Shown: positions 15,090 through 33,867 of the stretch, piece after piece | Numbering within the stretch: position 1 is the stretch's first letter | How the letters are laid out: each line of letters starts with the position of its first letter | Assembly (NCBI RefSeq): GCF_000948395.1 | Contig: NZ_JYFN01000030.1 | Span: 1 to 34,558, forward strand | DNA: 34,558 nucleotides | Source: Frankia torreyi | GTDB taxonomy: Bacteria; Actinomycetota; Actinomycetes; Frankiales; Frankiaceae | Reading direction: 5' to 3' | The notes under the pieces: model-generated | Databases searched by the model: none | Seen by the model: only the letters and a program-made list of their open reading frames with translations | Told to the model about the DNA's origin: nothing | Position numbers and translations under genes: made by a program

Positions 15090-17729
15090 TCAGAGCTGGG
15101 TGCAGTTGGCGGTCGCGGAAGTGGGGTGCCGCAGGCTTTCCGCAGGCGTGGCGGACGCGACGGTCGTCACCGTGGCGTCCGTCGGGTCGAACCGGCGGAT
15201 GAGCACCGGTGCGCTGCTCGAGTCGCCGTACCGGTCGAAGCTGATGTAGCCGTTCGCGCCGGCGAGGGCGAGATCGCCGCAGGTGCCGTTCAGGACCGCC
15301 TTGATGTTCGCGCGGAGCTGGCCGGGCGGCGGGGTGTTGAGCTCGGCGGCGCCGATGGCCCGGGCCAGGACCGACATCGCGTCGAAGGCGACGATCGTGT
15401 GCCCGGAGATGAGCCGCTGCGGGGTGTCGCGCACCCGCGCCGCCCACTGCCCGGGCACCGCGCTGCCTGCGCCGGCCTGCTCCAGGTAGGACGGCGGGAT
15501 GTCGCCGGGCTGGGCGAGGCCGAAGTCGGCGAAGTAGAAGGTGTGGCCGCCCATGGCGCCCGCCGCGATCTCCCCCGGGTCGGTCTCCAGCTCCATCGCG
15601 TCGTCCCCGGAGATGATCGGCAGACGCGGGTCCACCCGGCCGCAGGCGGACCCGGTCAGCGCCTCCAGCAGGGTGTTCACGCTGGTGGTCCGGCCGGTGT
15701 AGATGATCAGGTTCGGCGGCTGCGGGCCGGCGCAGCGCGCGCTGAGGGTGTGGCCGAGCACGCCCAGCACGGTGGGGCCGCCGTCCGCGGCGCTGGCCGC
15801 CGCCGCCTGCTCGGCGTCGGGGAAGGGCACGTGGACGGCCGGCGCGGCGCGGGGCAACCGGCCCAGCTCGGTGCTGACGTCCTGGGCGAGGTTGTCGCTG
15901 TAGTGGTCGGCGTTGGCGCCCTTCGGGCCGTTGGCCACCCCGGCGGAGACGATCAACGGCCGGACCGGCTCGTCGCCGCGCCCCTCCCGCTTCATGATCT
16001 CGGGGATCGCCCGCGCGATGACGCCCGCCTCCCGGCGGTTGGTCGGCCCGACCCGGAAGTACCAGTCGAACGCGCGGCGGGTCTGCCCGGGCGGCCCGAC
16101 GGGCCGGGTGAAGCCGTCGTCGGAGGCGGTGGACGACACGATGGGGAGATGGGTGGTTCCGCTGAGTGACGCCACCGCCTGGCGGGCGGCGGAGGTGCTC
16201 TGGAACAGGCCCAGGACTCCGGCGAGCCCGGGATCGGCGCGGGCCACCGCGTCGATGCGCCCGGCGACGGTGAGCGCCCCGTCCGAATGCCAGCCGACGT
16301 TGGCGACCAGCAGCCGGATCCGGGACCGGGAGCGCGCGCCCGGGGCGTCCGCGGCGGCGTTGATCGCCGCCTGCGCGAGCTGGGCCCCGAGCAGCTCGTT
16401 GAGTCCCCCCTGCCCGACGGTCGTCGGCGAGTCGGCCTGCCCGCCGCCCGGGCGGGAGTGCAGCCCGGTCAGCGGCGCCGCGACCACCACCGTGTACACC
16501 CCGCCCTTGCCGGCGAGCGCGGCGTTCTGCCGACCGATCGTGGTCAGCAGCGCGACGAGATCCGGCGAGGTCGCGTCGAAGGTGTACGCACCGTCGCTGA
16601 ACCCGATGCACTGCCCGTCGTGGGATCCCACCCAGGTCGCCGCGGCCGGCAGCGCCGTCACGGGGTCGGGCGCCTGACAGGTGCGCGACGATCCCGATCG
16701 GCCCAGCCCCGCGCCGAGGACGGCCCCGGCGGCGACGGCGCAGGCGAGGACCACCGCGGCAAGCACGTACGGCAACCGGCCCCGCGGGCGGAACCGGCGC
16801 CCCGCGTCGTCGACGTCGCCGTCGCCGTTATCAGCCTTGTCGGCGTCGGCTTTGGCGGGGTCGGCTTTGGCGGGGTCGGCTTTGGCGGGGTCGGCTTTGG
16901 CGGGGTCGGCTTTGGCGGGGTCGGCGGGGTCGGCGGGGTCGGCGGGGTCGGCGGGGTCGGCGGGGTCGGCCTTATCGGCTTCAGCGGTCGGGCGGGCCGA
17001 GCCGGTGGCAGTCTCGATGGTTGCGCCGGTAGCGCGCGTCAGGTCGGTCAGGCCCGGGGGCTCCGGGGGCTGCGGAGCGGTCCCGGAGGCGACCGCCGGC
17101 TTCCGGCCGCTCCCCTCGGTGAGAAGCGCGGCGTCGACCTCACCGTGCCGGATCAGCTGGGTCAATGCGAGCGTGACCTGGGCTTCCAGGTTGTCGGCGG
17201 TGCGGAAGGTACCGACGGTCACACCGGCGGAACGCAGCCGTTCCCGGAATGCCTCGACCAGCTCGAGATCACGATCGGTGAGACTGCGCGGAATGGGGGT
17301 GTCCTCGTGCAGCAGGAACAGCAGCCGGGGAATCCCGGTCTCGACCGCCGTGAGGAACTCCAGTTCCGTATAGGAGACGGGCGTGGGATGCGGCAGGCCC
17401 GCCGGCGGGCCGGGGAACCCCGCCGGGTCGCCCGCCGGCCGGCCGGTTGCGGGCTCGCCGGCCGCCGCGGTGCCGTCGCCGTGCAGTCCGCCGGCCACCA
17501 GCGAGCCGTATCGGAAGCCGATGACCCCGATGTACACGTCACACCCACGGACCTGCTCCTGACAAAAGGACGCGGGCACCTTGCTGACCGCGGTGAAATC
17601 CTCCATCGAGATGGCGATGTGCCCGCTACGGCGCACGGCGTCCGACGCCGCCCGCACGAAGGCCCGATCAGCCGGATACCTGTTCATGTCCGACGTGTGA
17701 CTGACAAACACCCGCAGGCCGACGCGCAC
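15090..17729 (-). CDS. DUF4062 (TIR-like) / transmembrane / ABC-receptor-like fusion protein
   Basis: Predicted 879 aa from GTG 17729. Residues 5-80 and 116-195 form a DUF4062 domain, TIR-related: RVFVSHTSDMNRYPADRAFV, then SMEDFTAVSKVPASFCQEQV, DVYIGVIGFRYGSLV and PVSYTELEFLTAVETGIPRL; a Gly/Pro-rich insert (81-115) splits it. Residues 196-310 are a disordered linker with ADP and AKADP repeats. RRFRPRGR followed by a helix (320-342) gives an N-in, C-out topology. Residues 352-879 resemble type I periplasmic-binding proteins of the branched-chain amino-acid receptor class: VYTVVVAAPLTGL, GGLNELLGAQLAQAAINAA, VLGLFQSTSAARQAVASLSG and GYISFDRYGDSSSAPVLIRR. No ABC transporter genes are nearby. 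I infer a one-component sensor that couples an outer ligand to an intracellular TIR-like module. The output is unknown; DUF4062 is often fused to STAND or TPR modules. The start is moderately sure. Confidence 0.8.
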   Translation of the reverse strand: MRVGLRVFVSHTSDMNRYPADRAFVRAASDAVRRSGHIAISMEDFTAVSKVPASFCQEQVRGCDVYIGVIGFRYGSLVAGGLHGDGTAAAGEPATGRPAGDPAGFPGPPAGLPHPTPVSYTELEFLTAVETGIPRLLFLLHEDTPIPRSLTDRDLELVEAFRERLRSAGVTVGTFRTADNLEAQVTLALTQLIRHGEVDAALLTEGSGRKPAVASGTAPQPPEPPGLTDLTRATGATIETATGSARPTAEADKADPADPADPADPADPADPAKADPAKADPAKADPAKADPAKADADKADNGDGDVDDAGRRFRPRGRLPYVLAAVVLACAVAAGAVLGAGLGRSGSSRTCQAPDPVTALPAAATWVGSHDGQCIGFSDGAYTFDATSPDLVALLTTIGRQNAALAGKGGVYTVVVAAPLTGLHSRPGGGQADSPTTVGQGGLNELLGAQLAQAAINAAADAPGARSRSRIRLLVANVGWHSDGALTVAGRIDAVARADPGLAGVLGLFQSTSAARQAVASLSGTTHLPIVSSTASDDGFTRPVGPPGQTRRAFDWYFRVGPTNRREAGVIARAIPEIMKREGRGDEPVRPLIVSAGVANGPKGANADHYSDNLAQDVSTELGRLPRAAPAVHVPFPDAEQAAAASAADGGPTVLGVLGHTLSARCAGPQPPNLIIYTGRTTSVNTLLEALTGSACGRVDPRLPIISGDDAMELETDPGEIAAGAMGGHTFYFADFGLAQPGDIPPSYLEQAGAGSAVPGQWAARVRDTPQRLISGHTIVAFDAMSVLARAIGAAELNTPPPGQLRANIKAVLNGTCGDLALAGANGYISFDRYGDSSSAPVLIRRFDPTDATVTTVASATPAESLRHPTSATANCTQL
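16848..16967. repeat. Coding minisatellite: five 15-bp then five 9-bp units
   Basis: GGCTTTGGCGGGGTC is repeated five times (16848-16922), then GGCGGGGTC five times (16923-16967). On the minus strand they encode (ADP)n followed by (AKADP)n in the linker of the DUF4062 fusion. All units are multiples of three, so the frame is kept as length varies. Confidence 0.9.
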
Positions 17730-17753
17730 CCCATTCCCCCGTACGTCGTGGGA

Positions 17754-17775
17754 AGTACCTGACCGGACAGTACCT
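17754..17775. promoter_or_regulatory. Direct repeats upstream of the DUF4062 fusion gene
   Basis: AGTACCT occurs at 17754-17760 and 17769-17775 (15-bp pitch), 25 to 46 bp upstream of the start. They could be paired activator sites or promoter elements; no regulator is linked to them. Confidence 0.25.
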
Positions 17776-17861
17776 AATGGGCGCCCGCAACCCGCCGCAC
17801 ACGGACCAGGCCCGGCGAAGCCGGGCGGGGGCCCGGCGTCACGGTCGCGGGATGAGCCGGA

Positions 17862-18017
17862 ATGCCGCCCTCCGCCCGCGTCCTGCAACGGCTCGGCCCG
17901 CGCCGCGAGGCGTACTTCGGCCGCAACGAACGCCTGCGCGGCGCGTGGACCGACGAGATCGTCTACGCCCTGCTCGCCGACGAGTGGGCCGCCCGCGGCT
18001 CGGCTACCCGGCGGTGA
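17862..18017 (+). pseudogene. C-terminal remnant of a GNAT (RimJ/RimL-type) acetyltransferase
   Basis: A 51-codon frame reads SARVLQRLGPRREAYFGRNE, then RLRGAWTDEIVYALLADEW. This matches the end of RimJ/RimL-type GNAT N-acetyltransferases: the S-x-R-V-hydrophobic-x-x-L-G-F acetyl-CoA helix, then G-x-W-x-D-x-hydrophobic-x-Y-A-L-L-x-x-E-W. The upstream half, including the pyrophosphate loop, is absent; an in-frame TGA lies just before the ATG. The Phe expected after LG is Pro here. The end overlaps the convergent DUF4232 gene by 14 bp. I read it as the surviving tail of a deleted gene; expression is doubtful. Confidence 0.6.
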
Positions 18018-18683: not shown

Positions 18684-18752
18684 AGCCTCGTCGACGACGG
18701 CCAGGTGATCATCGTCATGGACGCCGGCCGGCTCGTGTCCTCCGCCACCCAC
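18684..18752 (+). pseudogene. Possible tail remnant of an ABC transporter ATPase
   Basis: The frame reads SLVDDGQVIIVMDAGRLVSS and then ATH. It aligns without gaps to the H-loop-distal end of ABC exporter ATPases, where the usual pattern is S-T-V-x-D-A-D-x-I-hydrophobic-V-hydrophobic-D-x-G, then R-hydrophobic-V-E-x-G-T-H. Nothing ABC-like precedes or follows, so it would be a 23-codon remnant. The match is short and could be coincidence. Confidence 0.35.
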
Positions 18753-18822
18753 CGACGCACGCCAGCAGCAGGCCCACGCATCCGGCCGACCGCCATCCGG
18801 GGCGTAGGCTCGACGTCCCGTC

Positions 18823-18960
18823 ATGAAGTCCACCGGTGTCCGAATCCCGCCGGAAAGCGACTATATCGACAGGTTCCTCCGATGGATCCTTCGGGATCAC
18901 CACGTCGGGTACCAGCGGGCGGTTCCAGTCTCCGGCGATCCGCCGGCCACCCCACGGTGA
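18823..18960 (+). CDS. Small hypothetical ORF (45 aa)
   Basis: ATG 18823 opens MKSTGVRIPPESDYIDRFLR, then WILRDHHVGYQRAV, ending at TGA 18960. Composition (Tyr, Ile, His, Asp) is more protein-like than the surrounding frames, but there is no good ribosome site and I do not recognise it. It may be a real small gene, or another fragment in this remnant-rich stretch. Confidence 0.25.
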   Translation: MKSTGVRIPPESDYIDRFLRWILRDHHVGYQRAVPVSGDPPATPR

Positions 18961-18989
18961 AGGTCCGACCAAGAGCCGGGACGATTTGC

Positions 18990-19002
18990 ATCGAAAATCG
19001 AT
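18990..19002. promoter_or_regulatory. Palindrome before the marR gene
   Basis: ATCGA-AAA-TCGAT is a perfect palindrome ending 11 bp before GTG 19014. MarR proteins commonly bind such AT-richer palindromes in their own promoters, so this is a candidate autoregulatory operator. Confidence 0.45.
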
Positions 19003-19013
19003 ATGGTTCGCCT

Positions 19014-19532
19014 GTGGACCCCTCGCGCACGGCCGGCCGGCTGGATCTGGATCTGGATCTGGATCTGGATCTGGACGAGCTGACCACGGCGATCGAGGAC
19101 TTCAACTCGATCTTCATTCGGCTGCCGGCGGTCCGCCGGCTCGCCTTCTCGACCCTGTCGGTGCTGCACACGCTGGCCCGCCGCGGGCCGCTGCGCCTGA
19201 CCGACCTGACGGCGACGGAGCCGCTGGGGCAGCCGGCGCTGACCAGCCTCGTCGGGAAGTTGGAGCGCGACGGGCTGGTGTCCCGCCGCCGGGATCCGAA
19301 CGACGGGCGCGCGGTCCTGCTGTCCCTCACCGAGCGGGGCCGGCAGATCGTCGACGCCCGTCACGCCGACCGGGTCGCGAACCTGGCGCGCCTGGTTGAC
19401 CGGCTGGACGACCAGGAACGCGCCACGCTCACCGCGGCGGTGGGCGTCCTGACCCGACTGACCGGGATCGCGGCGTCCGACGAGGCCGCCGGCCCCGCCC
19501 AGCGACGCCGGCCGGAGCCGCAAGGCCCATGA
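19014..19532 (+). CDS. MarR-family transcriptional regulator
   Basis: Predicted 172 aa from GTG 19014. Residues 10-21 are an unusual (Leu-Asp)6 run encoded by a 6-bp tandem repeat. The winged helix-turn-helix follows: LSVLHTLARRGPLRLTDLTA, then PLGQPALTSLVGKLERDGLV, and the wing SRRRDPNDGRAVLLSLTERG with the family's D-x-R. The C-terminal helix forms the dimer (LVDRLDDQERATLTAAVGVL). The stop TGA overlaps the ATG of a truncated epoxide hydrolase frame (ATGA), so the two were once an operon, and the hydrolase or its substrate may have been the original target. The ribosome site is weak, leaving the exact start open. Confidence 0.82.
   Translation: MDPSRTAGRLDLDLDLDLDLDELTTAIEDFNSIFIRLPAVRRLAFSTLSVLHTLARRGPLRLTDLTATEPLGQPALTSLVGKLERDGLVSRRRDPNDGRAVLLSLTERGRQIVDARHADRVANLARLVDRLDDQERATLTAAVGVLTRLTGIAASDEAAGPAQRRRPEPQGP
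19041..19076. repeat. 6-bp tandem repeat encoding (Leu-Asp)6
   Basis: CTGGAT is repeated five times, then CTGGAC, at the 5' end of the marR gene. The unit is a multiple of three, so slippage would change the acidic run without frameshift. Confidence 0.85.
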
Positions 19533-19645
19533 CATGCAGCAGGACGCCACCCGTGTCGACCGGATCGTTCCCGCTCGCGCAGACCCCGATCCACGTGTCC
19601 GACGAGGTCCTCGACGACCTGCGCCGCCGGCTGCGACGTCGGTGC
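19529..19645 (+). pseudogene. N-terminal remnant of an epoxide hydrolase (EHN domain)
   Basis: The frame starting with ATG 19529 overlaps the marR stop by 4 bp. Its residues 12-37 read FPLAQTPIHVSDEVLDDLRR followed by RLRRR. This is the start of the EHN domain of epoxide hydrolases (pattern F-x-I-x-V-x-D-x-x-L-D-D-L-R-x-R-L). Similarity ends near 19645, where an Arg-Trp-Pro-Asp block would be expected, and the catalytic alpha/beta-hydrolase core is missing. It is a broken gene cut off between marR and the helicase operon. The 172 bp from 19646 to 19817 hold nothing I recognise. Confidence 0.5.
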
Positions 19646-19817
19646 GCTGGTGAGCGTCCCCGGATCGGCCACTACACCTGGGCTGCAGCTCCACCAGTGG
19701 GCGGACGTCAGGGATCGGAGTCGGCCTGGCCGTGTAACCGGGCCCCATGTGGTCCCGTCGCATGCGTGACGGTGCCCTCCGTGCTCGCCTCGCTCGGTCG
19801 CATGAGGATTCGCCCAG

Positions 19818-22800
19818 CTATGGACATCCGGACGCGAGAACGGTCGCGAGGGCCTCCTTGACCAGCATCGGGCTTGCTTCCATGGTGTGGAAGTCGGCGA
19901 CGACGACACGATCCGGCTCGATGCCCTCGGCGGCGAGCACGTCGACGGTCTTCGCGATGCGAGGGCTGGCCACCGCCTGGTCGAACGCCTCCAGCGGGTG
20001 TTTGACCACCAGGGCCGCCTGCCGTGGCCCGCTCGCGACGAGGCAGGACGGCGCCGGTGTGGCGACCTCTCGCATGGCCGGTTGGGCCTTCAGCCAGCCG
20101 GCGAGCGCGCGTTCCGCGCGGTCGGGCCCCGGGGTGAGCAGGCCGTGGCGGAGCACGCCGAGAAGGTCGCGGGCGATCCGCCAGTCGAGGAGCGGGTGGT
20201 AGGCCATGTTCGTGTAGTCGCGCAGGCACTGATAGCAGGACGACATGCAGTCGTCCGCGTGGCCGGCGCGCTCCAGGACAGCCAGGTACCGCTGCACGGT
20301 GTCGAGGAATCGGCCGAGCTCGTCCGCCTCGCCCAGGTGGGAGCTGAAGCCCGCCCCGTTCTCCAGGGTGTCCGCGAGGAAGGCGTAGAAGGTCTGTTCG
20401 CCGCCGCGGGCCGCGGAGTGAATGCCGGCGATGATCTCCTGCGGTTGGATGTCGAGGTGCTCCGCAGCGGCGCTGCGCAGCAGGAACGCCAGCGAGTACC
20501 AGGCTGTCCGCAGACCATGGGTGAGGTCCGCCGCGACCCGCGGCGCCACTCTGCGCAGGTTGAGCCGCAGTCCCCCCGCCGGCGGCGTGGGCGTGTACGA
20601 GCCGAGGAAGAACAGATCGGTGTGCAGGACGGCACCGAGCGCCGCCCGAGTGACCTCCCCCCTGGGCACCCGGATCCGCGGGTCGTCGAGGTGGTCGACC
20701 ACCGTGGTTTCCAGATATCCACCCCAGTCATGGCCCGCGCGGGCGAAGGTGAACATCCGTCCCAGGTTGTCGTTGACGATGTAACGATCTCCCTGGCCGG
20801 ACAGGGCGACGAGGTTCTGCTGTGTCGTCTCCTCCCGCAGCCGGTCGAGGTCGCTGGTGACCCGGGCGACGATCCGGCGCGGCGACCACGTGAACGCGCC
20901 GTCGAAGTCGCGGGCCGCCCCGGCACGGAATCCCAGCGGCTGGCGGACCTGCACCACCCGGTAGCCGCCCCGGCCGCACGCCGGACAGAGGGCCACAGCG
21001 TCGATGTCCACCAGCTCGTCGACATGGTTGCAGTCCATGCACAGGCCGAGATGACGCTGCTGGACGAGTGGCTCCGGCAGCGGCGAGACTCCACGGTATG
21101 ACGGTTGGAAGCTGGTCACGCCGACCACCGTGTGCACCCATCCGTCCCGGACGATCTCGCTGCCAGGGGCGAACTGGGACAGTGCGATCGACAGGTCACG
21201 ATCGACGACGTCGTCGGGCGGCCACGGGAACGACCTCGTCGGCCTGGACAGGTGCAGCAGCCGGACCTGCGTGGGGAACCCGAACATCGGCAGCCAGCCG
21301 GATTCGGCGAGCCGCTGGCTCAGCGCCTCGTGGCCGACCACGCGCGCGGCCACCTCGTCGATCGCGTCGGGCAGCCGCCGGACGCCGTCGATCGCCTCGT
21401 CGACCGTCGTCGGGACAGCCGCGTGGGCCGACAGGGCGTGGAAGGCCGCCGCGACCGCGTCGGTGTTCGCCGCCAACCAGCGCCGGATGTGCCCGCTGCG
21501 TGACGCCCATTCGTCGATCGTGCCGTACTCTCCATGGACGTTCGGCTGCCGACCGTCCACCCGCAGATCGTCGGGGAGGTCGCGGAACGCCTCGCGGAGG
21601 ATGGTCGCGCTCAGCGAGCGCTCGAAGATCTCCCGTTGGCCCATCGCCAGGTACGGCGCAGGTGTCGGATCGTTGGTGATCGCCGTCGGGTTCTGGAAGT
21701 AGTGCTCGTCGTGGCTGCGGCCGCGGCAGACGGTCAACGCGACGGCGACCGGCGAGCCACGCCGCCCGGCCCGTCCGACGCGCTGCTGATAGTTGTAACG
21801 GGTGGGCGGCATGTTCGCCATCGCGACGCTGGCCAGCGCCCCGATGTCCACGCCGGCCTCCATCGTCGTCGTGACGGACAGCAGATCGAGCCCCTCGGCC
21901 AGCGGGATCTCGTCATCGAGGAACACGTCCTGGAAGATCGCCTGGCGGCGCTGGCGTTCGGTGCGGCCGGTCTGGCCGGTCAACTCCGCGCAGGCCAACC
22001 GGAACCGGCCGCGCCCGGTCGACGCCTTCCACCCGTAGTAATCCTCGCCGGAGTCCCTGGGCGGGCTGCTCGCCTCCTGCAGCCCGGTTCGGCACTGCGT
22101 GCAGACGAGGCTGCCCGGATGCAGATGCTGGCGGCGGCAGCCCGGACAGGTCCAGGCCGCCTCGGCCGGGCGTCGCACCACGACCTCCTTCGGATCGACG
22201 AGGTAGCCGCGGACCGCCTTGTCCCAGCCGTGTTCCGCTCGTGCCTCGACCTCGCCGGCGTCGAGGCCGTGTGCCTGGCCGACCGCGCGCCAGAAGGCCC
22301 GCAGCCGTCCAGGCGGGCGCGAGCCCTCGTCCCGGTATCCGACAAAGCGACGCAGCTCCGCGAGGATGCGGATGCTGGCGCGGGCGATCGCTGTGGGGTC
22401 GGTGGGATCGAGGGTGAGTCGGCGGGCTCCCGGCCGCATGTCCAGCCAGCCGAGGCCGAGCGACTCGAAGTCACGGCCCGCGCCGGAGAGCAGGTTCTCG
22501 ATCACGTTTTCCAACAGGTCGGCCTCGGCGCCTTCCAGACCAGAGCGCTGCGAGTCGGTGAGCGTCCCGCGGACGGCGGGAACCGCTCCCGACCACTCGT
22601 AGAACTCGTGCCATTCGTCGTCGCCGTACTTCTGCCGGGACGGCTGCGGCCCAGCGGGATTCACCCCCATGCGGACAAGCCGCTGCTGGATTTTCGGAAC
22701 CAGCGACCGCAACGTCGGAGGCTCGACGAGCTGGGACTCCACCGCCGCCGTCACCGACTCGTCGCCGCTGATCCACGCGAAGACCAGCGTCTGGAAGGTG

Positions 22801-25274
22801 ACGCCGAAACGCTGGCTCAAGCGGTCGTAGGCCGCCTTGTTCTCCGGTGTCTTTGCGCCCTGGGTCCACCGGCGAGCGGCCTCGATGTCGACTGCGGCAC
22901 CGTCGTCCTCCCCGAGGATCTCGACGAGGAGCAGCCGGACCAGGTCCTGGTAGTGGCGCAGCCCGACGCCCGCGGCCATCTTGGCGGCGTCCTGCCGGCT
23001 GTCCGAGAACAGCAGAACCTTGCGTTCCCGTTGGTCGAGCTGGCCGGCCAGCTCGGTGACGAGCACCTGGTTGATCTTCTCGAAGCCGGTGCGCATCAGT
23101 CGCAGCGGCGACCGGTAGCGCAGCGGGTCGGTGGGCGCGAGCGGACGCGCTCGAGACGCACCCTTCCTGTACATGATCTCCCAGTCGGCGCCGCAGGCGG
23201 GGCAGCGGGTGGGAAACGGCGGGATCGTGCCGCGGTCGACGCCCGTCCCTCGCTTCGCCGAGACATGGAAGCTCCAGCCGGTGAAGCCGTGCTCCCCGTT
23301 ACTCAACCGGCCGGTGGTCGGGTCAAGCTCACTACGCCGGAAGGTGAAGGTCAGCTCGCCGCGCTTCCAGGAGGCGTCGTCGTCGGCCTGCTGCGGCTGC
23401 GTGGAGGGCCAGTAGACGATGTAGTTCGCCGCCGTGCGGTCGACGGCAGCCTGCTCTGGCAGCCGCGTGAGCTCGGGAACGTCCGGGAACAGCTCGCCAC
23501 GGAAGGTGGCTCGCTCGGTCTCGGCCGCGACGGTGAACCCGCCGAGCATGACGTCTCCGCAGCTCTGGCAGAAGACGAGTTCGAGCACGCGACCGCCGCA
23601 GTGACACCGGTCCCGCGGTTGGGCGTAGAGCCGGCCGACGGTGCGTGCCCGCCCGCCGTTCGCAACGGGGGCCGCGTCGACCAGGCCAGCCGGGTCGTCC
23701 GGGTCGTCGACGGCGGAGCAGGCTGGGTCGGTGCATGCCCAGATGCCGCTGACATTGCGGAAGAACAGGTGCGCGCGGATCTTCGGCAGGGCGTCGGCCC
23801 CATCGGCGGCGCCAGCCGTGCGCAGTGTTCCGAGCAGGCCCCGTAGCGCCGTCTGGCGCTCCGGTACGGCCACAGCGGGAAACAGACGGGCGGCGAGATC
23901 GGATGCTGTGCGGGTCACCGACCCACCGTGGTCCGGGTCCTGCAACGCGGCGCGCAACGCGTCTGGGGCGCCGGTGCGTCCGAGCAACTGGGACGCGTCC
24001 GGCGGGGTGAGATCGGCCGGACCGGCGGCGGCGCCGAGCTCGGCGGCGGCGCCGCTGAGGTCGATGGTTCTCCGTGATGGGTTGATTACCCTTCCGGCGA
24101 CGAAGTCGAAGCTGTCCGCGTCGACGGCGAAGAACTCGGAAAGGAAGCGGCGATCCCGTTGCGGGTCCAGGGAGGCCGATGCGGCGAGGATCCGCAGTTT
24201 CTCCGGCCGGCCGGCGATCCCCAGCCGATGTCGGAGGTTGCGCAGCAGGTAGGCGACCTCGGTGCCGGCGGTGCCACGGTAGAGGTGCAGCTCGTCGACG
24301 ACCAGGGTGAAGCAGTTTTCGGGTTTCCGGGCGAGCCAGTCCCGGGTCGTGTCGAAGAAGTTCTGGTCCCGTGCCCGGCCCAGCATGATGTTGAGCATCG
24401 AGTAGTTGGTGATGAGGATGTCCGGCGGCGCCGCCGCCATGTCCCAGCGGGAACGCATCTCGGCCCCGTCGAGCCGGGGGACGAAGTGGCGGGCGTCACC
24501 GCCGGTGCGCCAGGCCTGCCGGGCGCGTCGCTCGGTGGCGCGCAGATATCCCCGCAGCTCGGAGAGCTGCCGATTCTCGCCGGGCTCGCCGGTGACGGGG
24601 GTGGCGCCGGTGTAGCGGCCGAAGAAGAGCCGGTGGCCGCCGCGGTGGCGGTCCAGCCAGCCGCGGGCCTCGTCGCTGTCGAGCGCCCGCCGCAGCCGCA
24701 CCAGCTGGTCGTCGACGAGGGCGTTCATCGGGTAGAGCACGAGGGTGCGCACCGCCGCCGGGCGGCCGGTCTCGCCCTGTCGCTGAGCCTCGAACGGCCC
24801 CGACGTCCGCCACCAGGGCACCAGCGGCATCGAGCCGCCGGTCCAGGCCCGCGACTCGGCCAGCAGGCTCGCGATCACCGGCAGCAGGAAGGACTCCGTC
24901 TTCCCGGACCCGGTACCAGCGGTGATGACCATGTTCCGGCCCGGTTCAAGCCCGGCCGCCAGCGCCTGTTCCTGGTGGATGTAGAGGCTGCGGCCCGGCG
25001 GCAGCAGGCCGCAGGCGGCGAATTCGGCGAGTTCCGGCGGCGCGCCGACCCGACGGCCCGACTCCGCCGGAGAGCAGCCGGTCGTCACATATTCGGGCCG
25101 CAGCTCGATGAGCGGCTCGGTGTAGATGCCGCCGGGCCGGTCGAGCAGGGCCCGCCGCTCGCTCGCCAGCCGGTCGTCGGCCAGACCGAACGGCGTGTCG
25201 TAGTACCGCAGGTAGGCGCTGCGCAGCGCGTCGAACGTGCCGTAGACATCGAGCCCGGACCGGCCGCCGTTCAT
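19818..25274 (-). CDS. YprA/DruE-like DEAD/H-box helicase with DUF1998 domain
   Basis: Predicted 1818 aa. ATG 25274 overlaps the upstream stop (ATGA). Superfamily 2 motifs are complete: I AGTGSGKTES (119-128), Ia LYPMNALVDDQ (180-190), II VVDELH (325-330), III SASLD (366-370), IV-like LLFSDSRQDAAKMA (754-767), V TTTMEAGVDIG (1135-1145) and VI QQRVGRAGRRG (1163-1173). Roughly 380 residues between motifs III and IV hold zinc-ribbon-like pairs at Cys514/519, 557/559, 569/572 and 691/694. Further pairs are 1043/1046 with 1058/1061 and 1412/1415 with 1430/1433. The C-terminal DUF1998 (MZB) region carries Cys1676, 1680 and 1683 in CMSSCYQCLRDY. Helicases of this kind are central to Druantia (DruE), DISARM and Dpd defence systems; the length fits DruE best. 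A dsDNA or RNA translocase acting on foreign DNA is the inference. The last ~80 residues are unassigned. Confidence 0.88.
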   Translation of the reverse strand: MNGGRSGLDVYGTFDALRSAYLRYYDTPFGLADDRLASERRALLDRPGGIYTEPLIELRPEYVTTGCSPAESGRRVGAPPELAEFAACGLLPPGRSLYIHQEQALAAGLEPGRNMVITAGTGSGKTESFLLPVIASLLAESRAWTGGSMPLVPWWRTSGPFEAQRQGETGRPAAVRTLVLYPMNALVDDQLVRLRRALDSDEARGWLDRHRGGHRLFFGRYTGATPVTGEPGENRQLSELRGYLRATERRARQAWRTGGDARHFVPRLDGAEMRSRWDMAAAPPDILITNYSMLNIMLGRARDQNFFDTTRDWLARKPENCFTLVVDELHLYRGTAGTEVAYLLRNLRHRLGIAGRPEKLRILAASASLDPQRDRRFLSEFFAVDADSFDFVAGRVINPSRRTIDLSGAAAELGAAAGPADLTPPDASQLLGRTGAPDALRAALQDPDHGGSVTRTASDLAARLFPAVAVPERQTALRGLLGTLRTAGAADGADALPKIRAHLFFRNVSGIWACTDPACSAVDDPDDPAGLVDAAPVANGGRARTVGRLYAQPRDRCHCGGRVLELVFCQSCGDVMLGGFTVAAETERATFRGELFPDVPELTRLPEQAAVDRTAANYIVYWPSTQPQQADDDASWKRGELTFTFRRSELDPTTGRLSNGEHGFTGWSFHVSAKRGTGVDRGTIPPFPTRCPACGADWEIMYRKGASRARPLAPTDPLRYRSPLRLMRTGFEKINQVLVTELAGQLDQRERKVLLFSDSRQDAAKMAAGVGLRHYQDLVRLLLVEILGEDDGAAVDIEAARRWTQGAKTPENKAAYDRLSQRFGVTFQTLVFAWISGDESVTAAVESQLVEPPTLRSLVPKIQQRLVRMGVNPAGPQPSRQKYGDDEWHEFYEWSGAVPAVRGTLTDSQRSGLEGAEADLLENVIENLLSGAGRDFESLGLGWLDMRPGARRLTLDPTDPTAIARASIRILAELRRFVGYRDEGSRPPGRLRAFWRAVGQAHGLDAGEVEARAEHGWDKAVRGYLVDPKEVVVRRPAEAAWTCPGCRRQHLHPGSLVCTQCRTGLQEASSPPRDSGEDYYGWKASTGRGRFRLACAELTGQTGRTERQRRQAIFQDVFLDDEIPLAEGLDLLSVTTTMEAGVDIGALASVAMANMPPTRYNYQQRVGRAGRRGSPVAVALTVCRGRSHDEHYFQNPTAITNDPTPAPYLAMGQREIFERSLSATILREAFRDLPDDLRVDGRQPNVHGEYGTIDEWASRSGHIRRWLAANTDAVAAAFHALSAHAAVPTTVDEAIDGVRRLPDAIDEVAARVVGHEALSQRLAESGWLPMFGFPTQVRLLHLSRPTRSFPWPPDDVVDRDLSIALSQFAPGSEIVRDGWVHTVVGVTSFQPSYRGVSPLPEPLVQQRHLGLCMDCNHVDELVDIDAVALCPACGRGGYRVVQVRQPLGFRAGAARDFDGAFTWSPRRIVARVTSDLDRLREETTQQNLVALSGQGDRYIVNDNLGRMFTFARAGHDWGGYLETTVVDHLDDPRIRVPRGEVTRAALGAVLHTDLFFLGSYTPTPPAGGLRLNLRRVAPRVAADLTHGLRTAWYSLAFLLRSAAAEHLDIQPQEIIAGIHSAARGGEQTFYAFLADTLENGAGFSSHLGEADELGRFLDTVQRYLAVLERAGHADDCMSSCYQCLRDYTNMAYHPLLDWRIARDLLGVLRHGLLTPGPDRAERALAGWLKAQPAMREVATPAPSCLVASGPRQAALVVKHPLEAFDQAVASPRIAKTVDVLAAEGIEPDRVVVADFHTMEASPMLVKEALATVLASGCP

Positions 25275-26197
25275 GCACACACCTTCAGAGTCGAGGACAG
25301 TGATGTCGCGATGCGATCGGCGACGTTGCGCGGCACACCGTCGTACATCACCTGGCCAGGTGTCCGGTCGAGGACGGGCGGAAGCCCTGTGCACAACACG
25401 GCGATCCGCCGGTGCGCGAGCGGCAGCGGCATCCCGCTGTCGACGGACAGCACTCCGACCGCGCCGTCGCCCTTCCCTTCCTCGAACTCCCAGCGCAGTG
25501 GTTGGCTCGTTTCGCCGCCCACGAGATACCTGCCTTCGGCCGGGGTGGTCCAGAACCACCGGTCGCCGCGGCAGAGGAGGTATTCCTTGGCTGTGCCGTA
25601 GGTCTCCCGCTGGTAGAGGCCGTCGCCGAGGTGACGGCGGTCGGCAGCCTGGAAGGTCATCGTCCGGCGGTTCCAACGGGCCATCGGCGGTCCCTGGCGC
25701 CCCGGTGGCTCCGCCGGCCTCCCCGGTTCCACCGCACGCAGGGTCGCGCTGCGCCGGACCGCCGCGTCGGGCTCAAGGGGCAGGCCGCCACGGGCCGCCG
25801 CCGCAGACAGCCGCTGGTCGTCCTCATAGACCAGCCACCAGGTGGACGGCATGGGAAGCTGGCCCCGGCTGTCGTTGCGGTGGACGACAACCCGTACGCC
25901 CGCCCCCATAGCGGCCTCGAGCTGCGCCTCGCGGACCACTCCCGTAAACAGGGCGACGCTCTCGCGACCGGGGAGTGTGGCCAGCCCCGAAGGCTGTGCC
26001 TCCCATTGGCGTTGACGCCAGTCGACCGCGAGAACACCCAGTTCGTTCATGGTCAGAACCAGCCGGCGCGCGCGGGTGAGGTCCGTCGGGTCGACCCGGT
26101 CGCCCGCGTACCAGGCGATGGTCCGGTACAGGGAGGCAAGCGACCCGCCTTGGCGATCTGCCAACCAGGCGAGAAGAACATCCGGATCGAACGTCAC
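25271..26197 (-). CDS. Helicase-operon accessory protein, 308 aa, unrecognised
   Basis: Start GTG 26197 overlaps the upstream stop (GTGA) and its stop overlaps the helicase start (ATGA), so the three genes are translationally coupled. I recognise no named domain. Residues 1-75 look like a winged-helix fold: TFDPDVLLAWLADRQGGSLA, then TDLTRARRLVLTMNELGVLA. Residues 76-120 run on with LPGRESVALFTGVVREAQLE. Residues 185-308 are strand-rich with aromatics: YGTAKEYLLCRGDRWFWTTP, then AEGRYLVG, and RRIAVLCTGLPPVLDR near the end. There are no nuclease or methyltransferase motifs, signal peptide or membrane helix. A DNA-binding or adaptor role next to the helicase is a reasonable guess only. It is not recognisably DruH, DrmB or DrmC. 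Confidence 0.8.
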   Translation of the reverse strand: MTFDPDVLLAWLADRQGGSLASLYRTIAWYAGDRVDPTDLTRARRLVLTMNELGVLAVDWRQRQWEAQPSGLATLPGRESVALFTGVVREAQLEAAMGAGVRVVVHRNDSRGQLPMPSTWWLVYEDDQRLSAAAARGGLPLEPDAAVRRSATLRAVEPGRPAEPPGRQGPPMARWNRRTMTFQAADRRHLGDGLYQRETYGTAKEYLLCRGDRWFWTTPAEGRYLVGGETSQPLRWEFEEGKGDGAVGVLSVDSGMPLPLAHRRIAVLCTGLPPVLDRTPGQVMYDGVPRNVADRIATSLSSTLKVCA

Positions 26198-28221
26198 CGT
26201 GTCTTCCAGCCAACCTCGTGAGTGATCATGCTTCGATGGTTGAGGACGGCCTGCTGGTAGCGCCGCCAGGCCTGCTCGTGCGGCTGGCCGGCCTGGCTCG
26301 AGAGCACGAAGTGCGCCCATGCCTGCGCGTCGGCGGCCGTGAGGCGGCCGATGTTCGGGGAGTCGTCACGTAGCTGGCGGACGATCGTGCTCGATCCGGC
26401 CGCCGCCAGCCACACCGCCTCCCGCGGCGGGATGACTCGGTAGCTGAAGGCCCGCAGGGTGGTGCCCCGCCGCGTCCACCACCGGGGCGCGGCCGGTTCT
26501 CCGACGGGGGTCACGTGCCCGTCAACGTGGAGGAAGTACACCTTCGCTCCGTGCGGAACCGTCAGCGACCGGCCCGAGCCGGCGGGCAACCCCTCGATGT
26601 CGCCGGCGGTGGTCGGACACTGCGGCGGGTGCAGCGTGAACCGCCGGGTGAACCCGCCCGCTTGCACGGTGTAAGTGCCCTCGGCGAGACCGAGCGACCG
26701 GAGCCGGATGACTCGGCCGGTCGGCGGGGGGCGTAGGCGTCGCCCGTTGAGCAGGACCGGGGCCGCGGTGTCGAACCCCGCGGGCAGCGCAACGTCGGGG
26801 GGACCCTCGAGGAGGTAGCGAGACCCTCGCGCGCCCTCGCCACTCTCCCGGCCGATCCGCAGCCCGCCGACCAGTCGCAGCCGCGGCGAGGCCCGCACCG
26901 CCACACCGATCCCAAGCCGATCGAACACGGCGGTCGCCGCCGCAGCGTCGGTAAACAGCACGTCCCGCAGCACATGCCAACCCGGGAACGGGCCCTGCTC
27001 AGGGTCGACGTCGCCCACCGCGGCGCGCACCGCGTCCACCACGGCGCCGAGCCGATCGTCGCGCACGACGAACAGCAGCGGCTCGTCGGTGTCGACCGCG
27101 TCGCCGGCGACCCATGCGCCGGCCGCGTCGTCCTCGGCTGCGACCAGCAGGTCGCGAGGGCGTTGGGCGATACGCAGCCGGGTGCCGGTCGCCGTCAGGC
27201 CCCGTACCAGCGCCGTCTCCACCGCAGGCAGATCGCCGGTGAGGGTGTAGGAGGTCAAACCGGGCTCGGCGCGCACGGTGAGACTCCAACCGGCGCCGGT
27301 CAGCGCGTCGCCGTCGACACCGTCGACGATCGGTGCATGCCAGCCGGCCTCCCAGTTCCCCCAGTCGGCGTCGACGAATTTCGGTTGCAGGACCAGCCCG
27401 AGCCGTCCCGCCTCCATGGCCTGGCCGGGTACCTGGACCGGGATCGTCGGCCGGTGCGACGAGCCCGCCACCGCCGCGAGGATCCCGCCCAGAATCTCGT
27501 CCCGGTCCGATCGGGCGGTGGCGAGCGCTTCCTGCAGCGGAGGGGAGAGTCGCCCCGTGTCGAGTCCCTCCCAGCGACGCAGGGCCGAAACGAGTTCCGC
27601 CAGCGCCGCCGCCACCGCGGACCGCCCGAGCGGTGAACGGAAGAAACGCTCCAGTTCCGGCAGGTCACGTTCCCGGACGATGGCCTGGGACAGCGCAAGC
27701 ACGATCCACGACTGGCTGCCTTTGCGGCGCCCGACGTCGGGAAAGGTGACGATGCCCCGCGCGCCGTCCTGCTCGCGCATCCACCCGCCGAGGATCTCCC
27801 AGTGAGCGGGGATCTGCTCATAGCTCATCCGCAGCCGCCGCAGGCTCTCCTGCTCGGTGCTGCGCGGCATGGGCAGACATTCGACGAGCCGCTGGTAGTA
27901 GTTGCTGGACCATACCCGGCCCTCGCGACGCATCAGGGTGCCGGCGAGCACGCAGACGGCGAGGAGCGGCAGGCAGGGCGGCGGCTGCACGCGCGTTCCC
28001 CGTTTCCAGGCCGACACGGTACGGAAGATGCCGTCGAAGATGTCGTACCGGTGATACCAGTCGAGCCGCGCCTGGACGGCTTCGACGAGATCCGGACCGT
28101 CCGGTCCGCGCAGCGCCTTCGCCTTGTCGTTGTCGACATAGAGGACGACCGGCCGGCCGGCCGCGCTCGGTCCGAAGAATTCCTCCGCAAGCCGGTCCTG
28201 CCACCACTGATACGGGTCCAT
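26194..28221 (-). CDS. Helicase-operon accessory protein, 675 codons, unrecognised
   Basis: First gene of the operon, 675 residues by count. ATG 28221 has GAGG six bases upstream. I do not recognise the family. Residues 1-210 appear helical, with MDPYQWWQDRLAEEFFG, PVVLYVDNDKAKAL, LPLLAVCVLAGTLM followed by a YYQRL segment, and SWIVLALSQAIVRERDLPEL running into ERFFRSPLG. The middle (about 260-430) is mixed. Residues about 440-570 look like an immunoglobulin-like beta domain: PRLRLVGGLRIGRE, SRYLLEGPPDVALP and GLAEGTYTVQAGGFTRRFTL. The last 100 residues are helical and basic (HEQAWRRYQQAVLNHRSMIT). No catalytic motif, signal peptide or membrane helix is visible. Its position suggests a recognition or loading subunit for the helicase; this is inference. 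Confidence 0.8.
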   Translation of the reverse strand: MDPYQWWQDRLAEEFFGPSAAGRPVVLYVDNDKAKALRGPDGPDLVEAVQARLDWYHRYDIFDGIFRTVSAWKRGTRVQPPPCLPLLAVCVLAGTLMRREGRVWSSNYYQRLVECLPMPRSTEQESLRRLRMSYEQIPAHWEILGGWMREQDGARGIVTFPDVGRRKGSQSWIVLALSQAIVRERDLPELERFFRSPLGRSAVAAALAELVSALRRWEGLDTGRLSPPLQEALATARSDRDEILGGILAAVAGSSHRPTIPVQVPGQAMEAGRLGLVLQPKFVDADWGNWEAGWHAPIVDGVDGDALTGAGWSLTVRAEPGLTSYTLTGDLPAVETALVRGLTATGTRLRIAQRPRDLLVAAEDDAAGAWVAGDAVDTDEPLLFVVRDDRLGAVVDAVRAAVGDVDPEQGPFPGWHVLRDVLFTDAAAATAVFDRLGIGVAVRASPRLRLVGGLRIGRESGEGARGSRYLLEGPPDVALPAGFDTAAPVLLNGRRLRPPPTGRVIRLRSLGLAEGTYTVQAGGFTRRFTLHPPQCPTTAGDIEGLPAGSGRSLTVPHGAKVYFLHVDGHVTPVGEPAAPRWWTRRGTTLRAFSYRVIPPREAVWLAAAGSSTIVRQLRDDSPNIGRLTAADAQAWAHFVLSSQAGQPHEQAWRRYQQAVLNHRSMITHEVGWKTR

Positions 28222-28334
28222 CTACGGCCTCTTCCTCCCCCGGGACATCAGCCACGCACCGGCACCCGAAGCCGGGCAGGTGACATGCACCGCCGCGCAA
28301 CGGCCGACCCCAACCAGTCCGACCATCACCTCTC

Positions 28335-28340
28335 ATCATA
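28335..28340 (-). promoter_or_regulatory. Candidate -10 element of the helicase operon
   Basis: TATGAT reads on the minus strand from 28340 to 28335, about 114 bp upstream of the first gene, in one of the few AT-rich patches here. The hexamer 17 bp upstream (ACGGCA) is a poor -35, so a different sigma factor or an activator may be involved. Confidence 0.3.
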
Positions 28341-28504
28341 TTCCTCGTACGTTCCATTGCCGTTCATGCCTCGTCGGACAGCCCTGACCGGGCTCCCCGG
28401 TCACAGGTCCACGTTTCCGGCCGGCCGGCCCGGAACCCGATGCCGCGTCCCGCCGTCGTGAGACGCCGGCGTCGACAACCCACCCCGGCCATGCCCACCC
28501 AGAC

Positions 28505-28544
28505 GGATCGTCTCCGCGGGGGTGCCGGTGGATCGTCTCCGCGG
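28505..28544. repeat. Two 15-bp direct repeats upstream of the helicase operon
   Basis: GGATCGTCTCCGCGG occurs at 28505-28519 and 28530-28544, a 25-bp pitch. They could be paired binding sites, or recombination traces at the edge of the island. No array or spacer pattern is present. Confidence 0.5.
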
Positions 28545-28659
28545 CGGCACGGAGCCCCGCCGCACCGACTGGTCTCATGGCATGTCCTCCGCCCCGACGC
28601 CGACGGCACACCCCCAGACCCCAGGTGCCGTGGCGCCGCACAGGTGCGCAGGTTTCCGC

Positions 28660-28923
28660 CTACACCGTTTCCGTGCGTCCCTTGTCGACGACGGATTCAT
28701 CGGCGGAGAGTATCCGGCGGGAAGGAGCTCTCGACGGGAACGTGACCACCCGTCCCGATACTTTTTCAATCACCCGCCCAAGCGATCCCGCGAACTGGTC
28801 ACCCAGATTCCCGGTCTCGTTGATGAGCCATCCCTGCGGGAACTCGACGAGATTCCGTGGACGGTCCGGGTCATCACTTTCGCGACCGAGAAGTGCGGAG
28901 GCTATCTCGCGAGCGCCCCGCAA
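28660..28923 (-). CDS. Small hypothetical protein, possibly of immunity-protein type
   Basis: Predicted 87 aa from TTG 28923; the frame directly follows the GGDEF stop at 28948 with no other in-frame start between. The sequence is protein-like: REIASALLGRESDDPDRPRN, LVEFPQGWLINETGN, GRVIEKVSGRVVTFPS and APSRRIL. The ordering (N-terminal helix, a G-W strand, then a T/S-G-x-V strand with FPS and a P-x-R-I tail) recalls small YrhB/Imm35-like proteins that often neighbour toxins, but I cannot confirm this. Third-position GC is lower than in the flanking genes, suggesting transfer. No good ribosome site is visible, so translation may depend on the GGDEF gene. Confidence 0.45.
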   Translation of the reverse strand: MRGAREIASALLGRESDDPDRPRNLVEFPQGWLINETGNLGDQFAGSLGRVIEKVSGRVVTFPSRAPSRRILSADESVVDKGRTETV

Positions 28924-28947
28924 ACGATGGCAGCGGAGCCGGCCGGC

Positions 28948-30063
28948 CTAGCGTTGCCGGAGCCGACCCGTCTCACGCTCTGGCGCCGCGAGGCGGGGCC
29001 TGCGGCGGGTGGCCGGGGTGCGCAGGGACTCGTCGAACAGGACGCGACAATTGCGTCCCCGCCGCTTCGCCGCGTACATGGCGATGTCGGCGGCGTGCAG
29101 GATCGCGCGGGGGTCGGTCAACCCCGGGGCGGACACCGCCACGCCGATGCTCGAGGTGACCGGGGGGCCGTCCGACGGCGCGCGCACGGCGGCGGTTTCG
29201 ACGATGCGGTCGGCGATCCCCAGCACGGACTCAGCCGAGGTGATCCCCTCGCACAGCACGGCGAACTCGTCGCCGGCGAGCCGGGCGACGGTGTCGCCGG
29301 GGCGCACGGCCCGCCGCAACCGCGTCGCCACCTCACGCAGCACCAGGTCGCCAGCCTGATGGCCGGCCAAATCGTTAACGGCCTTGAAGCCGTCGAGGTC
29401 GACGAAGAGCAGCCCGACCCGGTCCTGCCATCCGCCTGCCTCGGCCCGGGCGAGGGCCCGGCCAAGCCGGTCGAGGAACGACACTCGGTTCGGCAGGCCG
29501 GTGAGCCCGTCGCGCAGCGCGCGGCGGCGGGCGCGCGCCGCCCGCGCCGCCTCGAAGCCGCGCGCCGACACGACGGCGGTCGAGATCTGGCCGGCGACCA
29601 GGGCGACGAAGTCACGGTAGTCGCCGTCGAGCGCGAGCCGGTCGCTCAGGCCGGCCAGGAGCAGGCCGATCGGGTGGCCGTCGCGGCCGTTGGCGAACGG
29701 CACCGCCAGCGCTGACCTCGACGGCGCCGACCTCGCCAGCGCCGACCTCGACGGCGGCGAGCCCGATGACGGCAAGCCCGATGACGGTGTCACGCGCCGT
29801 GACAGCACTGTCGGAACGCGGATGCGTTGCCACGCTCGCTCGCGTCCTCGTCCTCGTGGCCGTTCGACCACTCCCCTCGCCGGCCGGTCCCGGTCGCTCG
29901 GCGGCCCAGGGCCGACCCTGCGGGCAGGCCGCGACCGCGTCACCGTCGGGCGGCCCTGACCTGTCACCGGCGACGCTCCTGTCCCGATCGCCCGCGCTCT
30001 CCCCGAGATTGCCGTCGCCCGCGGCGGCAAACCCCACCCCGATCCGCGTCGCGCCCGATTCAC
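28948..30063 (-). CDS. GGDEF-domain protein (predicted diguanylate cyclase) with shortened GAF region
   Basis: The frame is 371 codons. Residues 183-345 are a GGDEF domain that makes cyclic di-GMP from two GTP. The active loop is RLAGDEF (AGDEF instead of GGDEF), FVDLDGFKAVND holds the metal-binding Asp, and RPGD (254-257), five residues before the loop, is an intact inhibitory I-site. Residues 120-176 (AVPFANGRDGHPIGLLLAGL, then ALVAGQISTAVVSARGFEAA) resemble only the last third of a GAF sensor domain of the kind fused to actinobacterial histidine kinases. Upstream of residue 120 the frame is Arg/Ser/Pro-rich and repeat-laden (29705-29787), so the natural N-terminus is probably lost or starts elsewhere. 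The coding end is firm; the start is not. It may be a truncated gene. Confidence 0.7.
   Translation of the reverse strand: MNRARRGSGWGLPPRATAISGRARAIGTGASPVTGQGRPTVTRSRPARRVGPGPPSDRDRPARGVVERPRGRGRERAWQRIRVPTVLSRRVTPSSGLPSSGSPPSRSALARSAPSRSALAVPFANGRDGHPIGLLLAGLSDRLALDGDYRDFVALVAGQISTAVVSARGFEAARAARARRRALRDGLTGLPNRVSFLDRLGRALARAEAGGWQDRVGLLFVDLDGFKAVNDLAGHQAGDLVLREVATRLRRAVRPGDTVARLAGDEFAVLCEGITSAESVLGIADRIVETAAVRAPSDGPPVTSSIGVAVSAPGLTDPRAILHAADIAMYAAKRRGRNCRVLFDESLRTPATRRRPRLAAPERETGRLRQR
29705..29790. repeat. Tandem repeats at the broken front of the GGDEF gene
   Basis: A 22-bp block beginning at 29705 recurs at 29735 with one mismatch (30-bp period). Directly after, GCCCGATGACGG occurs at 29761 and 29776 (15-bp period). 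They coincide with the point where GAF similarity ends. Confidence 0.6.
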
Positions 30064-33817: not shown

Positions 33818-33867
33818 CTACCTGTTACTACCTGTGGCGCAGGGCGTCTACCTGTGGCGCAGGGCGT
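33818..33867. repeat. 20-bp tandem duplication spanning the hemerythrin stop codon
   Basis: CTACCTGTGGCGCAGGGCGT is present twice (33828-33847, 33848-33867), with a further 8-bp partial copy at 33818. On the minus strand each copy ends in TAG; the first TAG met by the ribosome (33850-33848) is the stop, and the next lies 20 bp on in another frame. Confidence 0.85.

What the first reader, a model, noticed from the sequence alone, without database searches (positions are those of the whole stretch)
19818..28221. Three-gene operon built on a YprA/DruE-like helicase: candidate undescribed defence system
Seen: three genes joined by GTGA and ATGA overlaps, in the order 675 codons, 308 aa, 1818 aa. 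The last has complete SF2 helicase motifs plus DUF1998. Known: DUF1998 helicases of this family are the hallmark of Druantia, DISARM and Dpd, and related systems have recently been grouped around YprA helicases. Inference: none of the expected partners (DruA-D, DruH, DrmB, DrmC, a methyltransferase or PLD nuclease) is recognisable, so this looks like a separate helicase-plus-two-accessories type, with gene remnants on its 3' side as in a defence island.
Basis: partly seen in the sequence, partly recalled or inferred. Interest (0 to 1): 0.85.

Follow-up and report, generated by a model that had tools for sequence, protein, structure and literature searches.

The report
Druantia type IV phage-defence operon
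The three genes are a complete copy of an already catalogued bacterial anti-virus system, Druantia type IV (DruF-DruL-DruE), sitting at a spot where five related genomes lack it; it is not a new system, although I found no experiment on how, or whether, this type works.

Summary
In detail: three minus-strand genes of 675, 308 and 1818 codons, joined by GTGA and ATGA overlaps, the last an SF2 helicase of the YprA/DruE kind. The claim that no known partner is recognisable is wrong. PADLOC profiles assign all three: DruF4 (E 2.6e-98), DruL4 (5.2e-57), DruE4 (E 0, 2223 bits). DruE+DruF+DruL is Druantia type IV, described in 2021 (PMC8565338). In 78 public loci fetched with DruE alone, DruL is found in 77 and DruF in 73, in the order F-L-E; five have F and L fused. 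The operon is patchy: DruL in 1 of 13 genomes of the genus and 4 of 35 of the family. Five same-genus relatives keep flanking genes without it. Models hint at a winged helix in DruL and an Ig-like sandwich in DruF; DruE's C-terminal domain shows no conserved nuclease motif. Likely mechanism (inferred): DruF senses, DruL couples, DruE remodels phage DNA.

The parts
26194..28221 (-). druF (type IV), 675 aa; first gene of the operon
   Evidence: PADLOC DruF4 PDLC00052 E 2.6e-98, best stretch residues 3-532; no Pfam or NCBIfam match at E up to 1
25271..26197 (-). druL (type IV hallmark), 308 aa, GTG start overlapping the druF stop (GTGA)
   Evidence: PADLOC DruL4 PDLC00057 E 5.2e-57, residues 6-306; model pLDDT 93.4
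19818..25274 (-). druE (type IV), 1818 aa YprA-family SF2 helicase; ATG overlaps the druL stop (ATGA)
   Evidence: PADLOC DruE4 PDLC00051 E 0, 2222.9 bits, residues 7-1811; best solved relative 9wae_A E 4.8e-170
19821..20147 (-). C-terminal domain of DruE (about residues 1710-1818): HPL motif and a D-x-F-x-L-x-R-x-P-like motif, no conserved PD-(D/E)xK set
   Evidence: column counts over 53 sequences
19708..28983 (.). segment without counterpart in a same-genus relative that matches on both sides of it (gained here, or lost there)
   Evidence: blastn of the window against L105 (G006): a 62-base match ends at 19707 and an 805-column match resumes at 28984, with 100 bases between them in L105
19553..19609 (+). 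remnant of an epoxide-hydrolase gene (first 19 residues, 89% identical to a 409-codon frame of L104)
   Evidence: L104 7428-8657; the name epoxide hydrolase is my reading, from no family search
19641..19706 (+). remnant of a small lectin-like gene (22 residues, 82% identical to a 129-codon open stretch of L105)
   Evidence: the name lectin-like is my reading, from no family search

Best explanation
It is a complete Druantia type IV operon, druF-druL-druE (identity about 0.97; anti-phage role about 0.85, by family). Proposed mechanism (about 0.35, inferred): DruF is the infection sensor (helical N-terminus, then beta domains including an Ig-like sandwich); DruL, a winged-helix protein that works next to DruF and is sometimes fused to it, couples the sensor to the helicase and/or to DNA; DruE, a YprA-type ATP-driven translocase, loads on single-stranded or branched phage DNA and remodels or unwinds it. 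Because DruE's C-terminal domain shows no conserved nuclease motif, cutting, if any, would be left to host nucleases or to an unrecognised activity.
For: Shown: PADLOC assignment of all three proteins. Type IV defined as DruE+DruF with DruL, lacking DruM and DruG (passages of PMC8565338). Order F-L-E in 73 of 78 loci retrieved with DruE alone, DruL in 77 of 78; F-L fusions in L028, L034, L038, L041, L069. ATPase motifs kept in 71 aligned DruE. Patchiness: single near-full-length DruE match in 0 of 12 other genomes of the genus and 3 of 22 of other genera of the family; DruL in 4 of 35 genomes of the family, own included. Same flanks without the operon in five relatives. Models: DruL pLDDT 93.4, pTM 0.91, residues 2-69 align to winged helices (3o6b_H Z 7.9, 2.5 A, 65 residues; 2do7 Z 5.7, 2.9 A, 67 residues); DruF part of a natural F-L fusion has a sandwich at 403-483 (5nok Z 6.9, 2.1 A, 68 residues). 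From papers: in Druantia III, DruE is a helicase-nuclease that engages ssDNA-containing DNA and DruH, with Ig-like domains, is the likely sensor; DruE of types I and II carries a predicted inactivated Vsr domain.
Against: No experiment on type IV was found: the only paper of the library that holds 'Druantia type IV', 'type IV Druantia' or 'Druantia IV' is PMC8565338, and its passages say that Zorya III, Hachiman II and Lamassu II were tested. All fold matches lie under Z 8 and may mean only a common arrangement; Foldseek gave no match at E <= 0.001 for either model. The Ig-like region of DruF is not faster evolving than the rest, whereas positive selection is reported for DruH's Ig-like region: mean identity 0.48 and 0.57 at about residues 401-450 and 451-500, against 0.41 at 541-675 (113 pairs). 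The fusion model's pTM is only 0.58, so the F-L contact is not resolved. DruF has no solved relative at E up to 1. Dimeric DruH also has nuclease activity, so a partner protein could cut; this was not tested for DruF or DruL.
Confidence: 0.8

Rival explanations
1. A separate, undescribed helicase-plus-two-accessories defence system.
For: No Pfam or NCBIfam model matches the two accessory proteins.
Against: PADLOC DruF4 and DruL4 match them, and the set is published as type IV.
Confidence: 0.02
2. A shortened Druantia type II (lost DruM and DruG) rather than type IV.
For: DruE2 and DruF2 models also score very high (1816.5 and 276.3 bits).
Against: DruE4 and DruF4 score higher (2222.9 and 327.9 bits), and DruL, which type IV has instead of DruM and DruG, is present. 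DruL accompanies DruE in 77 of 78 loci.
Confidence: 0.03
3. The operon protects against plasmids or acts in DNA repair rather than against phages.
For: YprA/MrfA relatives act in DNA repair (section 3 of PMC12458937), and no test of type IV was found.
Against: Patchy distribution and same-genus relatives that lack it, unlike a housekeeping repair gene; Druantia III protects against phages.
Confidence: 0.1
4. A decaying, non-functional copy.
For: Two positions of the DruE C-terminal motif that most relatives keep (F in 45 of 53, R or K in 50 of 53) are H and A in the window; gene scraps lie beside it.
Against: All three frames are open and full length; L002 (73% identical DruE) also departs at both positions (H and M), so it looks like a lineage feature, not fresh decay. 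The scraps belong to other genes.
Confidence: 0.05

Closest known systems
Druantia type IV (PADLOC; Payne et al. 2021, PMC8565338)
   Same: DruE, DruF and DruL present by its own profiles; no DruM or DruG hit in ten flanking ORFs; wide but patchy spread
   Different: No difference in gene content found; DruF residues 533-675 lie outside the best-matching stretch of the DruF4 model
Druantia type II
   Same: Homologous DruE and DruF
   Different: DruL in place of DruM and DruG; lower profile scores
Druantia type III (DruH-DruE)
   Same: DruE-family helicase as the shared core; a partner with Ig-like domains as likely sensor
   Different: No DruH hit; DruE III has PLD nuclease domains, none recognised here; best DruE3 profile 366 bits against DruE4 2223
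ARMADA, BRIGADE, TALON (PMC12458937)
   Same: YprA-family helicases of the same large branch
   Different: The ARMADA partners (BrxHII-like helicase, PglX-like methyltransferase) do not appear among the ten flanking ORFs scanned nor the ten
DISARM, Dpd
   Same: SF2 helicase; DISARM also has the DUF1998-type region
   Different: Best DrmA and DpdJ profiles score 37 and 53 bits; no DrmB, methyltransferase or PLD family among the ten flanking ORFs scanned

Membership tests
Druantia type IV | DruE helicase of the type IV subfamily | tested here: met
   PDLC00051 E 0, 2222.9 bits, residues 7-1811 of 1818; no tree with typed references was built
Druantia type IV | DruF | tested here: met
   PDLC00052 E 2.6e-98
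Druantia type IV | DruL (hallmark) | tested here: met
   PDLC00057 E 5.2e-57, 4-307 of 309 positions
Druantia type IV | Genes encoded together in one locus | tested here: met
   GTGA and ATGA overlaps; order kept in 73 of 78 loci
Druantia type IV | No DruM or DruG with it | tested here: met
   No such PADLOC hit among ten flanking ORFs at E up to 0.01. The other ORFs of the window and the rest of the genome were not searched for them
Druantia type IV | Protects against phages | not testable with these tools
   No experimental test of type IV found either
Druantia type II | DruM and DruG present | tested here: not met
   No hit in ten flanking ORFs, nor by DruF or DruL
Druantia type III | DruH partner | tested here: not met
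   No DruH hit for either accessory or for ten neighbours
[quoted passage not shown]
   The ORFs scanned nearest to it are MarR, DUF4232, DUF4062 on one side and GGDEF, SDR, M20 on the other; PADLOC 2.0.0 of 2023 predates ARMADA, so it was judged by domain content
DISARM | DrmA helicase with separate DrmB | tested here: not met
   Best DrmA 37.2 bits against DruE4 2222.9 bits; no DrmB hit for DruF or DruL or for ten neighbours

The most novel reading that the evidence does not exclude
Druantia type IV works as a nuclease-free remodelling machine: a DruF-DruL sensor-adaptor complex, in some genomes one polypeptide, switches on a DruE translocase that blocks phage replication by remodelling DNA, without cutting it itself.
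Probability: 0.25. Interest if true: 0.45.

Novelty: already known. Interest (0 to 1): 0.2.

Why it matters
As a discovery it does not change the catalogue: published PADLOC profiles label all three genes. Its use is as an actinobacterial example of a type for which I found no experiment: the operon is compact, same-genus genomes show the site without it, and F-L fusions in other genomes suggest which proteins touch.

Tried and rejected
New-system hypothesis: dropped after PADLOC assigned all three proteins. Pfam scan of 84 DruF, DruL and fusion sequences: no family matched more than two members, best E 0.02. McrB/CnuB-like GTPase in DruF (suggested by the CoCoNuT link in PMC12458937): no Walker A pattern in 73 DruF sequences nor in the window's DruF. 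Repeats at the ends of the segment (19641-19830 against 28701-29010): no shared direct or inverted word of 10 bases or more, one inverted word of 9, so no mobile-element ends were identified. Mobile carriers: DruL had no match in 72,556 plasmid records and DruF none in 50,697 phage records at E 1e-5 (DruE was not tried there). Hypervariable Ig-like sensor region: not seen. Sequence search of solved structures with the DruL alignment: two hits, best E 0.28. Fold searches: no Foldseek match at E <= 0.001 for the fusion or for DruL. The DruL C-terminal half and most of DruF were not folded alone, so absence of a known fold is not claimed. Paper for the solved relative 9wae: not found. tRNA genes and Rfam families at gathering score in the window: none.

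Rows dropped before counts; 70 of 78 loci plus the window. A2: 52 of those 70 plus the window. A3: 49 loci plus the window, among them the DruL parts of the fusions L028 and L038. A1: 84 rows; only unfused sequences without stops and with at least 90% profile coverage (55 DruF, 68 DruL, 72 DruE, window included; 52 with all three; 113 pairs with DruE identity 0.55-0.93). The five loci without DruF: L006 (upstream reads N), L042 and L077 (contig ends), L065 and L076 (over 2.3 kb upstream, no hit). L042 (3,972-base contig) also lacks DruL. In L043, L063, L075 and L076 one of the three genes is split over two frames. In one search at most six candidates per genome were scored for all but the own genome's earlier search, and the match list was cut; 67 of 78 genomes had some match at E <= 0.001, nearly all of them short or weak helicase matches. 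One search scored every candidate. One search kept the best 80 of 101 matches.
Full report
What is there. The window's minus strand carries three open frames at 28221-26194, 26197-25271 and 25274-19818, of 675, 308 and 1818 codons. The second starts with GTG inside GTGA and the third with ATG inside ATGA, each overlapping the previous stop by four bases.

What it is. A scan against PADLOC-DB gives DruF4 for the first protein (E 2.6e-98, best stretch 3-532), DruL4 for the second (E 5.2e-57, 4-307 of 309 profile positions) and DruE4 for the third (E 0, 2222.9 bits, residues 7-1811). DruE2 scores 1816.5 and DruF2 276.3 bits, so type IV is the best fit. Pfam and NCBIfam have nothing for the two accessories, which explains why a reader without profiles saw no partner. 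Passages of the PADLOC paper (PMC8565338) define Druantia type IV as DruE and DruF with DruL in place of DruM and DruG, with 168 instances and presence in 11 phyla.

Conservation. A scan of the genome collection with DruE alone returned 78 distinct loci (the best 80 of 101 matches were kept, so these are the closer relatives). In these, DruL is found in 77 of 78 and DruF in 73 of 78, on the same strand and in the order F, L, E wherever found. The five without DruF are L006 (upstream reads N), L042 and L077 (contig ends), and L065 and L076, which have over 2.3 kb upstream and no hit. Record titles cover Actinomycetota, cyanobacteria, Bacillota, Gemmatimonadota, Chloroflexota, archaea and others. 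In five loci DruF and DruL form one open frame (L028, L034, L038, L041, L069), which suggests physical contact. The closest named relative is Parafrankia colletiae L002: DruE 73%, DruL 58%, DruF 54% identical.

Distribution and site. Among 78 genomes searched with DruE (own included), a single near-full-length match occurs in 0 of 12 others of the genus, 3 of 22 of other genera of the family (75, 52 and 49% identical) and 2 of 43 others of the class (36 and 38%). Limits of that call: at most six candidates per genome were scored, and 67 of 78 genomes had some match at E <= 0.001, nearly all short or weak helicase matches. The DruL profile, with every candidate scored, agrees: 4 of 35 genomes of the family, 1 of 13 of the genus, 0 of 14 named control genomes. 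In relative G006 (L105) a 62-base match ends at window 19707 and an 805-column match resumes at 28984, with 100 bases between; L105 also differs from the window between 18750 and 19645. In L104, L106, L107 and L108 the nearest flanking matches are about 2.0, 2.3, 0.7 and 0.1 kb apart, too little for the operon. That the window gained the segment, rather than the relatives losing it, is inferred from its absence in the whole rest of the genus sample. On the 3' side lie scraps of an epoxide-hydrolase gene, a 409-codon frame in L104, and of a lectin-like gene, a 129-codon open stretch in L105 (both names are my reading). On the other side homology to the relatives' GGDEF gene begins at 28984-29002, while the window's frame runs on to 28948. 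No shared word of 10 bases or more links the two ends examined.

Surroundings. Ten neighbouring ORFs were scanned against Pfam: MarR, DUF4232, DUF4062, GGDEF, SDR, M20 peptidase, MFS, NAD synthase, pyruvate:ferredoxin oxidoreductase, epimerase. Ten (nine of the same, plus 33848-34429) were scanned against PADLOC: one weak hit, MarR to Csa3 at E 0.0012. So there is no sign of a wider defence island among the ORFs tested; the others were not scanned.

How it may work. DruE keeps its ATPase motifs. Its last 110 residues are poorly conserved apart from an HPL motif (H in 48, P in 51 of 53) and a D-x-F-x-L-x-R-x-P-like motif from which the window and L002 depart at two positions; no conserved PD-(D/E)xK set is visible. 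This fits the inactivated Vsr domain reported for DruE of types I and II (section 8 of PMC12458937); the terms Druantia type IV, DruF and DruL do not occur in that paper's main text. The same C-terminus is found in the solved helicase 9wae (E 8.8e-99), whose deposited name is just 'Helicase'. The window's DruL folds with high confidence (pLDDT 93.4, pTM 0.91); residues 2-69 align to winged helices (3o6b_H Z 7.9, 2.5 A over 65 residues; next rows Z 5.7 and 5.2) and 70-145 to ACT- or shell-protein-like folds at about Z 5. The natural F-L fusion of L041 folds with pLDDT 82.9 but pTM 0.58; its DruF part has a sandwich at 403-483 like Ig domains (5nok Z 6.9, 2.1 A over 68 residues). All these Z values are under 8 and count as hints only. 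In Druantia III, DruH with Ig-like domains is the likely sensor and DruE the effector, while dimeric DruH has nuclease activity of its own (Discussion of PMC13192584); in mycobacteria DruH and DruE must interact (abstract of PMC13316683). By analogy I propose DruF as sensor, DruL as coupling factor and DruE as DNA remodeller. Shown: gene identity, order, fusions, motifs. Inferred: every functional step. Against it: the Ig-like region is not unusually variable here, unlike the positively selected Ig-like region of DruH, and a hidden nuclease in DruF or DruL is not excluded.

Is type IV tested in print? Only PMC8565338 in the library searched holds 'Druantia type IV', 'type IV Druantia' or 'Druantia IV' (open-licence PubMed Central papers only). 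Its passages say that Zorya III, Hachiman II and Lamassu II were tested against phages, and DruL is named among proteins with domains of unknown function. Wider searches listed 30 of 87 and 20 of 63 papers and showed no test either.

What I saw of each paper: PMC8565338 passages; PMC12458937 abstract, outline, sections 3, 5, 7, 8 and passages; PMC13192584 abstract start, passages and Discussion; PMC13316683 abstract and outline; PMC11090510 passages; all others search listings only.

Verdict. A complete, patchily distributed member of a published defence type. Interest 0.2; the mechanism of type IV is the open part.

Noticed in passing
window 19553-19706: Scraps of an epoxide-hydrolase gene and of a lectin-like gene side by side at the segment boundary; relative L104 has a 409-codon frame of the first and L105 a 129-codon open stretch of the second at this spot, so the site looks variable.
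   Followed up: partly
window 28948-29002: The GGDEF gene's 3' end reaches past the point where homology with relatives begins; its last codons seem replaced by the segment.
   Followed up: partly
L028, L034, L038, L041, L069: DruF and DruL fused into one open frame of 1019-1137 codons.
   Followed up: partly
window 15090-17888 (-): 932-aa protein with a DUF4062 N-terminus, a stretch of DPA/KADPA repeats and a long C-terminal part that looks like a substrate-binding domain (my reading, from no call).
   Followed up: no
window 18705-19532 (+): MarR regulator frame with a run of Asp-Leu repeats before the domain.
   Followed up: no
DruE residues 1796 and 1800: The window (H, A) and L002 (H, M) depart from a C-terminal motif that most of the other DruE4 aligned keep (F in 45 of 53, R or K in 50 of 53).
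   Followed up: partly
L006, upstream of its DruE: The stretch upstream of this Mycolicibacterium DruE reads N, so its DruF could not be seen.
   Followed up: no
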